Position numbers and translations under genes: made by a program
Shown here: piece after piece, positions 32,062 through 38,771 of the stretch
Layout of the letters: the number at the start of each line of letters is the position of its first letter
Position numbering within the stretch: position 1 is the first letter of the stretch
Source of the DNA: Nannochloris sp. 'desiccata'
Lineage: Eukaryota > Chlorophyta > Trebouxiophyceae > Chlorellales > Chlorellaceae
Assembly: GCA_019044685.2 (NCBI GenBank)
Contig: JAGTXX020000003.1
Span: 310,001-374,000 of the forward strand
Direction of reading: 5' to 3'
Length of the DNA: 64,000 nucleotides
Notes under the pieces: generated by a model
The model's database searches: none
Told to the model about the DNA's origin: nothing
What the model saw: the letters and a program-made list of their open reading frames with translations, nothing else

Positions 32062-34257
32062 TCACCGACTACCGCTGCCACTGTGGTTATGCTGTCCCTT
32101 TCCTCCTTCGCTAAAAACAGTACTGCTACTACTACTCTCCCTTGCATGCACCCAACGGTAGGCAAAGTAGGCAGTCAAACCAGCTACAGTCCCTCCAGCT
32201 GCGATTAAGGCACCGCGTCGCAACATACTTCTGTATTTTTTAGTCGCCTTCAAGGAAGGGGTCTCTGGAATTGCACCGCTGTCCTCTGGCCTGATTGCTG
32301 CGTGTATTACAGTTTGATACACTGCCCGTAAGGGCCCCACGTCCATAGAAGAACGCGGGGAGGAGCCACTGGGCCCGGCTATTTGTGGGAAATTTACTGG
32401 GAAATTGATCCCTAGAGCGCTACAAGCACAGCCGACCTCAGCAACCTGCGTGGGCGACATTTGATCTTCATTTAAACACACCATCACACACGGAAGGCAA
32501 TCTCCAGATGCAGAGGCTATCGTAACCATTAATTCCAACACAGAACGGAATGATTCAGGTTGTGCGCCGTCAAAAATGAAGAGAGCAGCGTCACAGCGTT
32601 GTAAGTCTTCTTGCCTGGTGGGTCGTTCCAACAAGGCAGCCGCTTGCTCCTCTGTGACAGCTTTAAGAATCATAGTTGAGGTGGTGGTGATTGCCGCTGT
32701 AGTTTGCTGTGTAGTTGCAGAACGAGGAGAATTAGACGTCATAGTAGTGGTATCTGTTCTTGTTGTTGCTTTGATAGAAGAGCTTGAAGTAGCGGTAGTG
32801 GTGCTGTTATCATCAGAAGACGGTGACGGTGAGGGTGCACTAGGAGGTGGGATTGCCGCCACTGCTGCAGCCACTGCCCCGTGTACAGCTCCATGTGCGG
32901 GTTTCGCTTGAGTAATCAACCCTTCCAGTACTGGTTTTGTATCTACACCACGTGCTGCAAAGGCCAAACACTGATAGACACTACGCCGACTACTTTCCAC
33001 CCTGGCAATTTTTTCTTGTCGACGGGTTTTTGATATTGCCAGTAATTGATCAAGCGGTGCTGATTCAGGAAAGCCTAGATAAATAGCTCCAGCAAGCGCA
33101 GCTTGAGGATCATGTGCAGCTGTATACGCCCACATTGCTAAATATCCTTGTAAAGTTAAAAGACCCTGGTTTTTCGTCGTTTCTACCAAGAGACCTTCAT
33201 AGTGCGGCAGTGTTTTCCAAGGATCTTCTGGAGCAGTAGAAAACATATTCTCTCTTTCTTTAATCGACAGGGCGCCATCGTTATCCACATCGAATTTCTC
33301 AAATACACTTGTAAAGAACGCACGCCCTGAAGGGCTGAGTTCAACCACCTGATCAGAGGTGGCAGTGGGAGGCAGGGCACCTCGAGCAATAACGTCGGCT
33401 CGTAAATGCAATTTATTATCATAGCCAAATCGTCTTAATACAGTCCAGGTGGTTTCTAATCTTCCTCGCTCAATAAATAAAGCGTGCAAAAATAAAAAAC
33501 CTTTCAAAGTTAGGCCATTTCGTGCAATTCCTTCAGGGCACTTCTCAGAAACGACTTGTTTGACCCCAACAAGTTCTTCAGTTTGCAGCGGAGCATTGAA
33601 ACAGTGAACTTGGAAATTATTAAGTTCTGCATCGTCCAGAATGCCGTCTTGGTCGGTATCACAGAGCATAAAGATACGTTTTAATGCTCTTGCGCATAAA
33701 GGGCGCAGTTTCTGGGCTTCTGGTTCATAGAGAGGGGCCATTGGATGAATAACTGCTTTCAATGCATAATAAAACACTTCACCGACAAATTGAAGGTTTT
33801 TAGCAGAGCATTCCATACAGGTTTCAATTTGTGGGAAGGTTTTCACGATGGGGAGTACAGCTTGGTGTAAAGATTGGTCAGCAGGGCGGACATCGCTTTT
33901 GCAACCAACCAAGATTACTGGCACGGTGACTGCCATCTTACGGAGCTCTGGAAGCCAATGAGAGGATACTCTGCGTAATGTTTGAGGTTTATCCATGCTA
34001 AAGCAAAGGACAATAACACTCGCTTCACGGCATGCTGATTCTAAAGCTTGTTTGTCTTCTGGCCTCGAGCTGGTGTCTGTGATTACAACGGGAACGCCTT
34101 CTGGAGTTGTGTCTGCTGGGAGCCTCGCTGGAGGAAGCACAGGTGGTGGATGCTCGGGAAAAGTTTCTGTAGATGCTGCTGTAATTAATGATGTTTTTCC
34201 TACGCCTGAATCGCCAATAACTGCTATGTAGACAGTTTTAGGTTCAGGAGAGGACAT
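32062..34257 (-). CDS. Mitochondrial Rho GTPase (Miro)
   Basis: Single-exon gene of 731 aa. Domain order is N-terminal Ras-like GTPase (P-loop GDSGVGKT at 15-22, VGCKSD as the NKxD-type motif near 118), then two EF-hand modules. Their calcium loops are DTDQDGILDDAEL (about 200-212) and DVDNDGALSIKE (about 323-334). Then come a second GTPase-like domain and a C-terminal membrane anchor (IAAGGTVAGLTAYFAYRW). This is the layout of Miro, an outer mitochondrial membrane protein that controls mitochondrial movement and inheritance in response to calcium. In the second GTPase the P-loop is lost: AARGVDTKP stands where GPKxAGKS is expected. A Ser/Thr-rich insert separates its strands. Confidence 0.92.
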   Translation of the reverse strand: MSSPEPKTVYIAVIGDSGVGKTSLITAASTETFPEHPPPVLPPARLPADTTPEGVPVVITDTSSRPEDKQALESACREASVIVLCFSMDKPQTLRRVSSHWLPELRKMAVTVPVILVGCKSDVRPADQSLHQAVLPIVKTFPQIETCMECSAKNLQFVGEVFYYALKAVIHPMAPLYEPEAQKLRPLCARALKRIFMLCDTDQDGILDDAELNNFQVHCFNAPLQTEELVGVKQVVSEKCPEGIARNGLTLKGFLFLHALFIERGRLETTWTVLRRFGYDNKLHLRADVIARGALPPTATSDQVVELSPSGRAFFTSVFEKFDVDNDGALSIKERENMFSTAPEDPWKTLPHYEGLLVETTKNQGLLTLQGYLAMWAYTAAHDPQAALAGAIYLGFPESAPLDQLLAISKTRRQEKIARVESSRRSVYQCLAFAARGVDTKPVLEGLITQAKPAHGAVHGAVAAAVAAIPPPSAPSPSPSSDDNSTTTATSSSSIKATTRTDTTTMTSNSPRSATTQQTTAAITTTSTMILKAVTEEQAAALLERPTRQEDLQRCDAALFIFDGAQPESFRSVLELMVTIASASGDCLPCVMVCLNEDQMSPTQVAEVGCACSALGINFPVNFPQIAGPSGSSPRSSMDVGPLRAVYQTVIHAAIRPEDSGAIPETPSLKATKKYRSMLRRGALIAAGGTVAGLTAYFAYRWVHARESSSSSTVFSEGGKGQHNHSGSGSR

Positions 34258-35063: not shown

Positions 35064-36627
35064 GGAGACAACTCTTTATTTCTTCTTTTCTAGATGAAGG
35101 TACACATATGAGGATCCTTTTTTTTTTAGTTCTCTAATTAGAGTAGAATAGTTATTAGAGTGTAAAGTTAAAATTAACAATACTTAGTAACAAGAGGTTG
35201 GGGAGCTCGGAGGGAGAAATGTTGTCAGCACCACGTCAGCAGCTATTTATAATCCAGGAATCTACACAAAAACAATTACCAAGTAAATGCCTATGTGATG
35301 CTTTTAAACGTACGTTTAATCAATCCACTCGAGCATGTAGAAGACTTCGGCAGTCGCCAGTTTTTGGCAGCAAAGGCGGTGATGATCACGGCTGCCAAAA
35401 TCATTATACAAACGGAATAGAAGACTCTGGTATATCTGAAACTGTGTTGATTAACCAATTTAAAGGATATTTAAAGTGAAAAAGTGGTATTACAGCCTAA
35501 AACAGCCTTTGAAAGGACTGAAAAAGTACAACACCAACTTTCGGCCGGAAAATGACCACGTCGTTAATTTTAGCTAGGCTTTCTGGCTAAATCGATCCTC
35601 AAAGAAGATGACCTCAAATTTTCAAAGATGGTAAAGTTGCCATTCTGATGGAAGGTACCTTGGCAGTTTACCACAGAATTTACAGTCCCGAAGCTACTGC
35701 CCCAACAGTGGCAGCAACGTATCTTGGCCAAAGTGTGTCTCATTGACCTGAAAATGGTTGCATTTGATCGCAAATGGCGTGTAGGGTAGGAATATGGACT
35801 CAAAATTGCAAAAATGCAAAGCAGGCACTCTACCACTGAGTTACAACCCCAAAGTTAGTGGAGTTGGGAGGAATCGAACCCCCGGCTTCCAGCAAGTTTG
35901 TATGTGAAAACGACTTGAAGGCAACGTGCTTTCCAACTCTACAGTTTTGTAAAAATGCAATTTGTATCAAAAGTCGAAATTTTCCTTATTCAGCGCTTCT
36001 CTGATCCAAATAACAAACAAATAACCACTATTTGAAGCATATCTATTTGTAGGGGTGGGTGGATCAAATGTACAAATCGCAAATAAGAAGTATCAGTCAA
36101 TCATCGAATAAAATCTTCACGTCTTATGTATTTCAAACCCTTTTAAGAGCGCAAATAGCACTCTTACGTGTTTAAATAGCATGAAATCATTTGAAACATC
36201 AAGATAACCCAATGAAACTCACATTTATTTAACGCCAACAAACCCCTATCAATGCCTCCGCCCGACTCCTCCCTTGCAACATATCGAAAGAGAAGGATGA
36301 AATGTACTATTATTAGTCATGGTCCTCGGATTGAATCAAATTGGAGTAAGGTATGAGCGGGAACCTTCACGCTGTATTTGACCAGAGGTGATCGAAACAA
36401 TTAACAATTAAAAAAAAAGTAGAAGAAGAAGAAAAATCCGACATGATCTTTATTGCTTTAATTTTATTGCGCATTACTATTTTACAGCTATCCACATTTA
36501 AACTAGTGAAATAGAAACAAAGAAAGGGCTTAGCAGTCAATTAATCTTGTAGACTAGTTTACATAAAGTTATATTTTGCTGTCCAGCTATGTTCCCGCTA
36601 AAATCTAAAATTTCCTGACGAATCATC
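35064..36627. other. Region without protein genes, holding a permuted tRNA
   Basis: This is 1.56 kb. Apart from the permuted tRNA-Ala at 35815-35894 I see no gene. A frame at 35198-35479 has no conserved features. The right part (36000-36600) is AT-rich and includes the presumed 3' UTR of the poly(A) polymerase gene (TTACA at about 36559, TGTAA on its strand). Confidence 0.45.
35815..35894 (-). tRNA. tRNA-Ala(UGC), permuted gene (3' half before 5' half)
   Basis: On the minus strand the 3' half (35894-35859, positions 38-73) comes first, then the 8-nt spacer CTAACTTT (35858-35851), then the 5' half (35850-35815, positions 1-37). Acceptor strands GGGGTTG and CAACTCC pair over 7 bp, including the G3-U70 pair that defines tRNA-Ala, with discriminator A73. 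The D arm is ACTC-AGTGGTA-GAGT. The anticodon stem is CCTGC/GCTGG with one U-U mismatch, and loop TTTGCAT gives anticodon UGC. The variable loop is AAGCC. The T arm is GGGGG-TTCGATT-CCTCC, with a perfect B box, GGTTCGATTCC. Outside the halves, UUUG (32-35) can pair with CAAA (35900-35897). This leaves 3-nt bulges CA^U and CU^U, a bulge-helix-bulge core that would cut exactly at 37/38. The mature RNA would be 72 nt plus CCA. No conventional 3' half follows the 5' half. Confidence 0.87.
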
Positions 36628-38771
36628 TTAAACCACTGCTTCTGCTGCGACAGTTTCCGTGGGTCCAGCTTCCCCACCAGCAGTCCAATCTACTAAATCT
36701 TCCCTCCTCTCCACAGCAGCAACCGCTTCAGCATCAGCTACAATACTCGCCCTTTTCGAAGGCCTCTCTTGTCCGTTTTCCGCCACCCCTCCGGCAGACC
36801 GTTTCTTCTTCTCTTCTTCACCACCATCTACAACACCACTGCCTTTAGCTGCTGTGGTATTCTTATTCCTCACCCATTCAGGTAGACTTCTCTGTAATAA
36901 GTGCCTCACAAATAAATCCATCCCTGGTTTTCTATCTGGCCAGTCTTTAACTTTATGTGCAAAATCATTCACAGCTGGAGTTAAATCCACTTTGCTTTGT
37001 GGAATGACCAAAGCTTGACCATACTGATACGTAGAAGCACGTTTTTTAGCCAACCCTATAAAATAAAAACATCGAGGACCACCGTTAATACTCGTGCCAT
37101 TGGCAGTGGTCTTTGTTTTTTCCAACGTGTCCTCCTCTGCCACGCTTTCTTCCACAGACGGCGGTTCAAATGCCTTTGGCCATGGTCGTACATCGACCAT
37201 ATTACCAGCAGATCTAATTAATAACCTCATACGTGAATGTACCCACCCCTCCCACAGCTCGAAATCTTCTTTATTAGCAGCGGTAACCTCGACCATTAAA
37301 TAGTGTTTAAAACCTTCGAAAATTGGTAATGGCTCAAATAAACGAGACCATTCTGTTGGGGATGGAGCAGTCGCCAGCAAGATTTCATCACACACAGTTT
37401 TGCCTACACGATTAGATTGATGAAATTAGGGAGAAATGAGGAAGAATCAGTTGATTAATAGATTTATTAATAGATTGATTGATTGATTCAACTATCCAAC
37501 CTTTGATGAAACCACGCACTAGGCGGAATTAAAGAAATTAATAAAATTAAAGAAAACAATTAAAGCAGAAAACATAATCTACATACCTCTCTTAAATTCG
37601 TCAGTCATCACTTGCAATGTACAATCAGATACATTATAACTCGAATTCATACATGGGTATGCCGGTGTAATAATAGGCATCAAATGGGACCTATCCCTAG
37701 GGTTTTCTCTAGGATCCCATATAGGCATATTCAACGAAGGATCTCTCTCTATCGGTCTCAACATAATAGGTGTTGGCCAGCTCCATTGTGCGTACAGCCA
37801 AAAGAACCGTGAAAGTAGCATTGAAGGAGCTGCATTTGGATATAATTTGCATGTATATGCTGCTAGAATAGCCCAGTTAACACCACCTAGGTACCCGGTA
37901 ACATTGCTATAGACGCCTCTTTTTTCCGCCCATAATTTGAGCGCCCTTAAAACAGTACGAAAATTCTCTACAGAGGGGACTTCTCTAAGAATCATATCTG
38001 TGACACGACATCCGTTTAGAGAACGGACGCTACGATCATCACAATGCCTTAATGTAGAAGTCGCTTGAATATCGAGGTTGTGGCGAACAACAGGAATGGC
38101 CAATTCAGCGTAGAGCAAATCGATAGAGATATCACTATATTTGAATTCAATGACTGGGACGTAAGCCCCAGTAACTGCGCGGAAAGCCTCAACACCCGGA
38201 GTCCTGGCTAGTACAGATTGCATCGTATGGGGCTCAGTGCCAAAGAAATCGCCTTCTCTTTTGGCATAACTGGGCCCTACACACAAGGTATCAATATCAG
38301 CTCCTGGTCCATGGACTCCTAGCCTGTACGAACCGAATGTGTAGATATTTGCGTTCGCGTCTTCTATAGGCTGGCCTTGTAGCTCAGCGACACCTTTGAT
38401 CCATTCTTTAACGATGCCATCAAGGCGGCCGAGGACTTCTTCACGGAGTTCTGCCTCAGTTTGAGATTCATATAGATTTTGAGATATTAGGAACTGGAGT
38501 AGGAGAAGTCGGGAGAGAGAAGTCTTAGTTATCGGACGTAAGGAAGGGAAGATAAACACATATATAGAGACGACGGGAAAGTGAAAATGTTTAATTTTAA
38601 TCTTTTATTGGTTGGATTTAATCAGAGGACGAGGATTACGGGTTTTTTCAGCGACATTTAAATTTATATTTTTGAAAGCCTTTGGATTACCTTTTCCAAG
38701 TCTTGTGATTGCCTCAGGTCTAGTTCTGAGGGACCTTGGAGCGAAATTGGCTCTATCGTAGACTTGACCAT
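36628..38771 (-). CDS. Nuclear poly(A) polymerase
   Basis: Three exons on the minus strand: 38771-38691, 38493-37587 and 37403-36628, phases 0 and 1, giving 587 aa. The first exon ([19 protein letters not shown], ending DLEK) supplies the classic PAP N terminus and joins to [10 protein letters not shown], so it replaces the false non-ATG start upstream of 38493. The nucleotidyltransferase core has [18 protein letters not shown] (about 77-94), with the first two catalytic aspartates, and SIDLLYAEL with the third. The central helical domain ([28 protein letters not shown]) and the C-terminal RNA-binding domain ([22 protein letters not shown]) follow. It adds poly(A) tails to cleaved pre-mRNA as part of the 3'-end machinery. 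The C-terminal tail is basic (KKKRSA, RPSKRAS) like a nuclear import signal. Confidence 0.94.

What the first reader, a model, noticed from the sequence alone, without database searches (positions are those of the whole stretch)
35815..35894. Permuted tRNA-Ala(UGC) gene with a bulge-helix-bulge junction
The two halves of one tRNA lie in reverse order on the minus strand, 3' half then 8-nt spacer then 5' half. Together they form every arm of a tRNA, including the alanine-specific G3-U70 pair and anticodon UGC. Sequence just outside the halves forms a 4-bp helix (UUUG with CAAA) with 3-nt bulges on both sides, placing the splice cuts at 37/38. Permuted tRNAs are known from Cyanidioschyzon and prasinophytes. 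One here would require circular pre-tRNA processing and helps place the organism. One U-U mismatch in the anticodon stem and a weak outer helix are the soft points.
Basis: partly seen in the sequence, partly recalled or inferred. Interest (0 to 1): 0.9.

Follow-up and report, generated by a model that had tools for sequence, protein, structure and literature searches.

The report
Permuted alanine tRNA gene, green alga
This is a transfer-RNA gene whose two halves lie in reverse order, so its RNA probably has to be made into a circle and recut to work; in this small green-algal genome most of the transfer-RNA genes found are built the same way, more than in any organism I found described.

Summary
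Window 35894-35815 (minus strand) holds nt 38-73, an 8-nt spacer and nt 1-37 of a tRNA-Ala(UGC) with G3-U70. A canonical junction helix (nt 32-35 UUUG with CAAA) puts both cuts at 37/38. A covariance model built without this gene finds it at 60.4 bits (E 2e-18).

It is not a lone oddity. The 21.55-Mb, 18-contig source genome, green-algal by its LHC genes, yielded 28 permuted loci for 25 tRNA species, against 9 conventional nuclear species. The model sought 37/38 junctions only. Rejoined, 25 of 25 are called as the expected tRNA; in genomic order 0 of 25. TTTT follows nt 37 within 27 nt in 25 of 25 and lies in 0 of 25 spacers. Leader nucleotides -3 to -6 pair with nt 32-35 far above chance in that register alone (60/100 against 36, z 6.3). 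Two splicing-endonuclease genes are present.

Permuted tRNAs are a known kind (34 tabulated in 2014, at most 11 per genome). New here is the scale.

The parts
35859..35894 (-). 3' half of tRNA-Ala(UGC), nt 38-73: nt 38, anticodon-stem 3' strand, variable loop, T arm, acceptor 3' strand, A73; no CCA encoded
35851..35858 (-). 8-nt intervening sequence CTAACTTT joining nt 73 to nt 1; no TTTT
35815..35850 (-). 5' half, nt 1-37: acceptor 5' strand, D arm, anticodon-stem 5' strand, anticodon UGC, A37
35897..35900 (-). leader CAAA, 3' strand of the H helix (positions -6 to -3 before nt 38)
   Evidence: register test
35817..35820 (-). nt 32-35 UUUG, 5' strand of the H helix
35894..35896 (-). 3' bulge CU|U38 with the inferred 3' cut before nt 38
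   Evidence: inference
35814..35816 (-). 5' bulge CA|U with the inferred 5' cut after nt 37
   Evidence: inference
35870..35880 (-). B-box GGTTCGATTCC (T arm), upstream of the A-box
35833..35843 (-). A-box region (D arm), downstream of the B-box
35810..35814 (-). TTTTT, candidate RNA polymerase III terminator; a second TTTT at 35805-35802
35662..35684 (-). possible decayed extra 5' half (TGTAAATTCTGTGGTAAACTGCC); borderline
   Evidence: score 19, best of 100 shuffles 20, best of other genes' halves 17

Best explanation
A working circularly permuted (type II, junction 37/38) nuclear tRNA-Ala(UGC) gene. RNA polymerase III transcribes leader, 3' half, spacer, 5' half and a T-run as one RNA. The anticodon stem and the UUUG:CAAA helix form a bulge-helix-bulge that tRNA-splicing endonuclease cuts at both sides; ligation of nt 37 to nt 38 makes a circle. 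RNase P and tRNase Z then cut out the CTAACTTT spacer, and CCA is added. Shown here: the sequence anatomy, the junction helix, the terminator position, the shared architecture of 25 tRNA species and the presence of two endonuclease genes. Inferred: transcription, circularisation, maturation and charging.
For: Anatomy. Leave-one-out model 60.4 bits, E 2.1e-18. 24 further permuted species in the genome, 28 loci in all. 25/25 rejoined genes recognised with the expected anticodon, 0/25 in genomic order, 61/500 with mismatched halves. TTTT starts within 8/15/27 nt of nt 37 in 21/23/25 of 25, background 5.4/9.3/15.6%; none in 25 spacers. Leader:loop pairing 60/100 at register -3 (shuffled 36.3 +/- 3.7); the 32:-3 pair in 19/25. 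Acceptor stems 174/175, T stems 123/125, anticodon stems 122/125 pairs. Two PF01974 genes, 69.6 and 57.6 bits, without stops. No second Ala(UGC) found (5 of 10 other pattern places examined).
Against: No RNA data. U29-U41 mismatch in the anticodon stem (Cys-GCA has the same). Thermodynamic fold of the unmodified spliced RNA is not a full cloverleaf, z -1.26. Not every permuted gene has a good H helix: 6 of 25 lack the 32:-3 pair. The lack of T-runs in spacers is weak on its own (2.4 expected, chance of none 0.065). An upstream promoter element is only suggested, and its word (AATTTT) is absent from the 300 nt upstream of this gene. The D/anticodon-arm pattern of this gene matched 11 places against 1 for the reversed control; 5 of the 10 other places stay unexamined.
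Confidence: 0.93

Rival explanations
1. A shuffled, dead relic: the gene was rearranged and is no longer expressed, alanine GCA codons being read by another tRNA.
For: U-U mismatch in the anticodon stem; Ala(AGC), itself permuted, could read GCA through inosine (general knowledge); a possible decayed 5'-half copy lies nearby.
Against: Intact acceptor, D and T arms, terminator and junction helix; no other Ala(UGC) found in the searches made; the same architecture serves Trp, Cys, Tyr, Phe, Asn and Lys, for which the searches made showed no conventional gene.
Confidence: 0.04
2. A split tRNA: the halves are transcribed separately and joined in trans.
For: Halves are complete and a junction helix exists.
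Against: No TTTT in any of 25 spacers and a T-run after nt 37 in all 25; spacers as short as 5 nt leave no room for a promoter.
Confidence: 0.01
3. Two decayed conventional tRNA genes side by side, one having kept its 3' half and the next its 5' half.
For: The Rfam tRNA model reads the 5' half with downstream DNA as a weak conventional hit (19.8 bits).
Against: The halves complement each other in acceptor and anticodon stems, and 25/25 pairs give the right tRNA against 61/500 mismatched pairs recognised at all.
Confidence: 0.01
4. A two-piece tmRNA-like RNA.
For: Best Rfam hits are cyano_tmRNA and permuted tmRNA, 31.4 bits each.
Against: Below gathering scores (70 and 47), covering T arm and acceptor only; here there is a D arm with G18G19 and an anticodon arm, in a nuclear genome.
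Confidence: 0.005

Closest known systems
Circularly permuted tRNA genes of Ostreococcus, Micromonas and the Bigelowiella natans nucleomorph (Maruyama et al. 2010, seen through PMC3978253)
   Same: Green lineage, all but one tabulated junction at 37/38, hBH junction motif, spacers of 5-64 bp
   Different: Those genomes list 2-6 permuted genes each; Ala(UGC) is not among them. Here 25 species are permuted
Circularly permuted tRNA genes of Cyanidioschyzon merolae (Soma et al. 2007, seen through PMC3978253)
   Same: T-stretch after the 5' half, none in the spacer; circular RNA intermediate shown there; includes an Ala(TGC) with an 8-bp spacer
   Different: Its Ala(TGC) junction is 59/60 (type IV); junctions scatter over the cloverleaf; 11 of 43 genes are permuted
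Permuted tRNA genes of Auxenochlorella UTEX 250-A (PMC12636532, passages only)
   Same: Green alga in which tRNAscan-SE gave an incomplete set until permuted genes were detected
   Different: Number and sequences are in a supplement I could not read
Permuted tRNAs of Thermofilum pendens (PMC3978253)
   Same: Permuted halves with a splicing-endonuclease junction
   Different: Archaeal, junction 59/60, CCA encoded, two genes

Membership tests
Circularly permuted tRNA gene | 3' half upstream of 5' half, joined through a spacer at the acceptor ends | tested here: met
Circularly permuted tRNA gene | Halves together form a full tRNA with eukaryal consensus nucleotides | tested here: met
   (Ala, tgc); one U-U mismatch
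Circularly permuted tRNA gene | BHB-type motif at the junction | tested here: met
   UUUG:CAAA; register test over 25 genes z 6.3; outer helix absent, i.e. hBH form
Circularly permuted tRNA gene | One transcript: T-stretch after the 5' half, none in the spacer | tested here: met
   sequence only, no transcript seen
Circularly permuted tRNA gene | Upstream TATA-like promoter | tested here: inconclusive
   AATTTT peak 80-100 nt upstream in both gene classes, chosen after the fact; absent within 300 nt of this gene
Circularly permuted tRNA gene | Circular RNA intermediate and charged mature tRNA | not testable with these tools
   needs RNA
Circularly permuted tRNA gene | tRNA-splicing endonuclease present in the organism | tested here: met
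   two PF01974 genes
tmRNA (cyano_tmRNA, permuted tmRNA) | Rfam model over its gathering score | tested here: not met
   31.4 bits against 70 and 47
Conventional tRNA gene | 5' half before 3' half, found by a tRNA finder | tested here: not met
   ARAGORN 0 in the window; 0 of 25 in genomic order

The most novel reading that the evidence does not exclude
In this green alga circular permutation at 37/38 is the default architecture of nuclear tRNA genes (25 of the 34 species found), so that translation of most codons depends on circular pre-tRNAs, and RNA polymerase III initiates on tRNA genes from an upstream element regardless of the order of the A and B boxes.
Probability: 0.75. Interest if true: 0.88.

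Novelty: new member of a known kind. Interest (0 to 1): 0.78.

Why it matters
Permuted tRNA genes were known as a minority oddity (at most 11 per genome in the 2014 table, PMC3978253). A genome in which most tRNA genes found are permuted makes open questions directly testable: how such genes arise, whether the circle has a function, how polymerase III works with its internal promoter boxes reversed, and what selects junctions for the splicing endonuclease. It also warns that an ordinary tRNA search can miss most of a genome's tRNA genes: the Rfam tRNA search passed its cut-off for 10 loci only (63 of 825 candidates scored).

Tried and rejected
Naming the organism: one LHC product matches chains named Lhca3 or chlorophyll a-b binding protein best, another matches a chain named LHCI-2 first and then LHCII-type chains. 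These searches print no species, so no class is claimed and a secondarily green alga is not excluded. A pedinophyte paper (PMC12574857, passages) gave no match. The protein database was off.

RF04321 and RF02553 were bait for permuted architecture. RF02553 (YrlA, whose model has T arm, acceptor and D arm in this order) worked: 12 of its 12 matches are permuted loci by R1. RF04321 gave this gene, one hit (L032) close to two permuted Val genes, and six hits with nothing. An upstream word search gave mostly repeats. The AATTTT peak was found after looking at many words and is kept as a hint only.

Anticodon-stem registers: Gly-GCC and Leu-TAA were first mis-set and corrected; the register test was significant before (59/100, z 6.1) and after (60/100, z 6.3). 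The odds of the novel case were lowered from 0.80 to 0.75 on re-checking, because its promoter clause has no support at this gene. L092 (tRNA-like, odd anticodon) stays unresolved and is not counted.

Full report
What is there. On the minus strand of the window, 35894-35859 is nt 38-73 of a tRNA, 35858-35851 the spacer CTAACTTT, and 35850-35815 nt 1-37. The acceptor pairs 7 of 7 with G3-U70, the T stem 5 of 5, the D stem 4 of 4, the anticodon stem 4 of 5 (U29-U41). The anticodon is UGC. The next bases after nt 37 are TTTTT. Nt 32-35 (UUUG) face CAAA in the leader, with CU|U38 and CA|U as bulges: the hBH junction at 37/38. ARAGORN finds no tRNA in the window and Rfam none over gathering. The gene lies between a poly(A) polymerase gene (36628-38559, two reading frames) and a GTPase gene with EF-hand-associated domains, Miro-like by recall (32062-34257), both on the same strand.

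Chance. A covariance model of permuted tRNAs trained on ten other tRNAs of this genome (R2; five permuted, five conventional ones permuted in silico) scores the locus 60.4 bits, E 2.1e-18, with the only other window match at 14.8 bits. The model that includes it (R1) gives 75.3 bits. Against: the unmodified spliced RNA does not fold to the full cloverleaf, and 23 of 200 shuffles fold as well.

The genome. The window is part of G000:C3; G000 has 21,550,525 bases in 18 contigs. The Rfam tRNA model passed its cut-off for 10 loci, with six more at 17-24 bits (63 of 825 candidates were scored). Of those six, one overlaps this gene and five proved to be permuted tRNAs. Baits used afterwards: the exact GGTTCRANTCC places, of which 90 of 91 are covered by loci (C9:1062374 is not); D-arm patterns with up to 3 mismatches (9 of 9, 11 of 11, 11 of 18 and 11 of 18 places looked at); RF04321 and RF02553. 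R1 over the fetched loci (about 326 kb with overlaps) separates cleanly: permuted loci 39.3-76.7 bits, everything else 22.0 bits or less. L159-L163 were checked by ARAGORN only. R1 models junction 37/38, so permuted genes with other junctions would be missed.

Census. 28 permuted loci, 25 species: Ala-TGC, -CGC, -AGC; Arg-TCG, -ACG, -TCT; Asn-GTT; Cys-GCA; Glu-CTC; Gly-TCC, -GCC (two loci); Ile-AAT, -TAT; Leu-CAA, -TAA; Lys-CTT; Met-CAT; Phe-GAA; Ser-AGA, -GCT; Thr-TGT; Trp-CCA (three loci); Tyr-GTA; Val-AAC, -CAC. Six of them (Ala-TGC, Lys, Tyr, Arg-ACG, Arg-TCG, Cys) trained R1; 19 did not. Conventional nuclear species: Val-TAC, Gln-CTG, Met-CAT (initiator by recall), His, Pro-TGG, Pro-AGG, Ser-TGA, Ser-CGA (ARAGORN calls it Pro-CGG; I read Ser-CGA), Asp: nine, six of them called with an intron in the anticodon loop. 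Two conventional Ser-GCT genes of identical sequence look mitochondrial (by recall) and are not counted; nor are L092 and an ARAGORN Thr call that spans a Trp copy in L073. So 25 of 34 species are permuted. The census is incomplete: about ten usual anticodons (by recall) were found in neither form. The Rfam search favours conventional genes, though it missed the intron-bearing Pro-AGG. The D-arm patterns, which do not prefer one form, gave 11 permuted and 5 conventional species (read).

Function tests over the 25 species, one copy each. Rejoined halves: 25 of 25 called by ARAGORN with the expected anticodon; genomic order 0 of 25; mismatched halves 61 of 500. Stems: acceptor 174/175, T 123/125, anticodon 122/125, D 93/100 by a fixed-position rule; T8 25/25, A14 25/25, U33 24/25, TTC 54-56 25/25, A58 25/25; no CCA follows nt 73 in any. 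TTTT begins within 8, 15 and 27 nt of nt 37 in 21, 23 and 25 of 25 against 5.4, 9.3 and 15.6% of random window positions; no spacer holds TTTT, where 2.4 would be expected, P(0) 0.065 (the 27-nt and spacer counts repeated on the corrected set). Spacers are 5-55 nt, median 12. In conventional genes the T-run follows nt 73 instead (by eye). Junction: Watson-Crick pairs between nt 32-35 and the leader number 60 of 100 at register -3 against 36.3 +/- 3.7 when leaders are dealt among genes (p 0.00005); of the other eleven registers the best is z 2.2. The 32:-3 pair is Watson-Crick in 19 of 25; that this is the A-I pair of eukaryal splicing endonuclease is recalled, the review names such pairs without positions. 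Six genes lack it and several have only two or three H pairs, so the junction is often relaxed. This gene has all four.

Is it the only Ala-UGC? The gene's own DNA finds only itself and the Rfam list shows no conventional Ala. Its D-arm/anticodon-arm sequence with up to 3 mismatches matches 11 places, itself included, against 1 for the reversed control; five of the other ten were fetched and none is a tRNA by ARAGORN. Five were not examined and the excess is unexplained.

Mechanism. The review PMC3978253 (abstract, sections 5, 6 and 8 whole, part 1 of sections 4 and 10) describes the route tested in red and green algae: splicing at the BHB, a circular intermediate, removal of the spacer probably by RNase P and tRNase Z, CCA addition; it argues that reversed A and B boxes are unsuitable for TFIIIC. 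The junction, spacer, terminator and tRNA body that this route needs are present here. An AATTTT word peaks 80-100 nt upstream of permuted (9 of 23 occurrences within 300 nt) and conventional genes (3 of 7). This is a post hoc hint of a shared external promoter, and this gene lacks the word.

Origin. Among 136 comparisons of flanks with a gene's own halves, the best were a 3'-half copy upstream of Thr-TGT and a 5'-half copy 35 nt downstream of Glu-CTC (score 25 each, best of their shuffles 20), then a T-arm fragment upstream of conventional His (20 against 18) and a 5'-half-like stretch 130 nt downstream of this gene (19 against 20). They fit duplication models in the review, which reports an extra 5' half in O. 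lucimarinus Cys. Of the nine species permuted in prasinophytes in the review's table, six are permuted here, what chance would give when 25 of 34 are, so common descent is not shown.

Novelty. Searches of the held library led to 34 permuted genes tabulated in 2014, at most 11 in one genome; two more in a nucleomorph paper (PMC4494063, passages); and an uncounted set in Auxenochlorella (PMC12633428 and PMC12636532, passages; supplement not readable). PMC13353863 only cites the topic (passage). The other listed papers were seen as listings. I found no report of a genome with most tRNA genes permuted; subscription papers are mostly not held, and the organism's own paper, if any, could not be identified. 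The gene is a new member of a known kind; the scale is the surprise.

Noticed in passing
L064 (Thr-TGT), L108 (Glu-CTC), L007 (His), window 35662-35684: Decayed extra copies of tRNA halves beside permuted or conventional genes, possible traces of duplication; Thr and Glu stand out from shuffles, His is a T-arm fragment, the window one is borderline.
   Followed up: partly
C6 about 2.47-2.76 Mb and C13 (L146/L147, L005/L006): T-loop places, Gly-GCC and mitochondrial-like Ser-GCT genes recur on C13 at matching distances in reverse order to the end of C6: C13 looks like a second copy or haplotig of that end.
   Followed up: no
C15 about 183-1077 kb, C17 about 275-385 kb: Pattern and LHC matches on C15 mirror around about 630 kb, and those on C17 around about 330 kb with a copy on C9: large palindromes, real or from assembly.
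   Followed up: no
C8 321 kb, 551.5 kb, 552.6 kb (L072, L073): Three near-identical permuted Trp-CCA genes, two of them inverted to each other close to the contig end.
   Followed up: no
L017, L020, L080 about 85-120 nt upstream of permuted tRNAs; also L007, L044, L049, L053, L054, L063: A 34-nt repeat (CTCGAACCAGGGAGTTTAAAGTCATCACCAGGAC, up to 3 differences) upstream of Cys, Phe and Arg-TCT genes and at other fetched places, perhaps an element that inserts near tRNA genes.
   Followed up: partly
L145, L152 and six further places: An 18-nt match repeated eight times lies, in the two copies read, in what looks by eye like a Ty3-type retrotransposon RNase H region.
   Followed up: no
L092 (C5 about 482.8 kb): tRNA-like gene with good T arm and acceptor, a long interruption and no sensible anticodon; multi-intron gene or relic.
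   Followed up: partly
one search places on C2, C4, C5, C6, C8, C10, C11, C12: The D/anticodon-arm sequence of this gene has 10 other near matches against 1 for the reversed control; most share CTGCTTTGCA-like letters and the five fetched are not tRNAs.
   Followed up: partly
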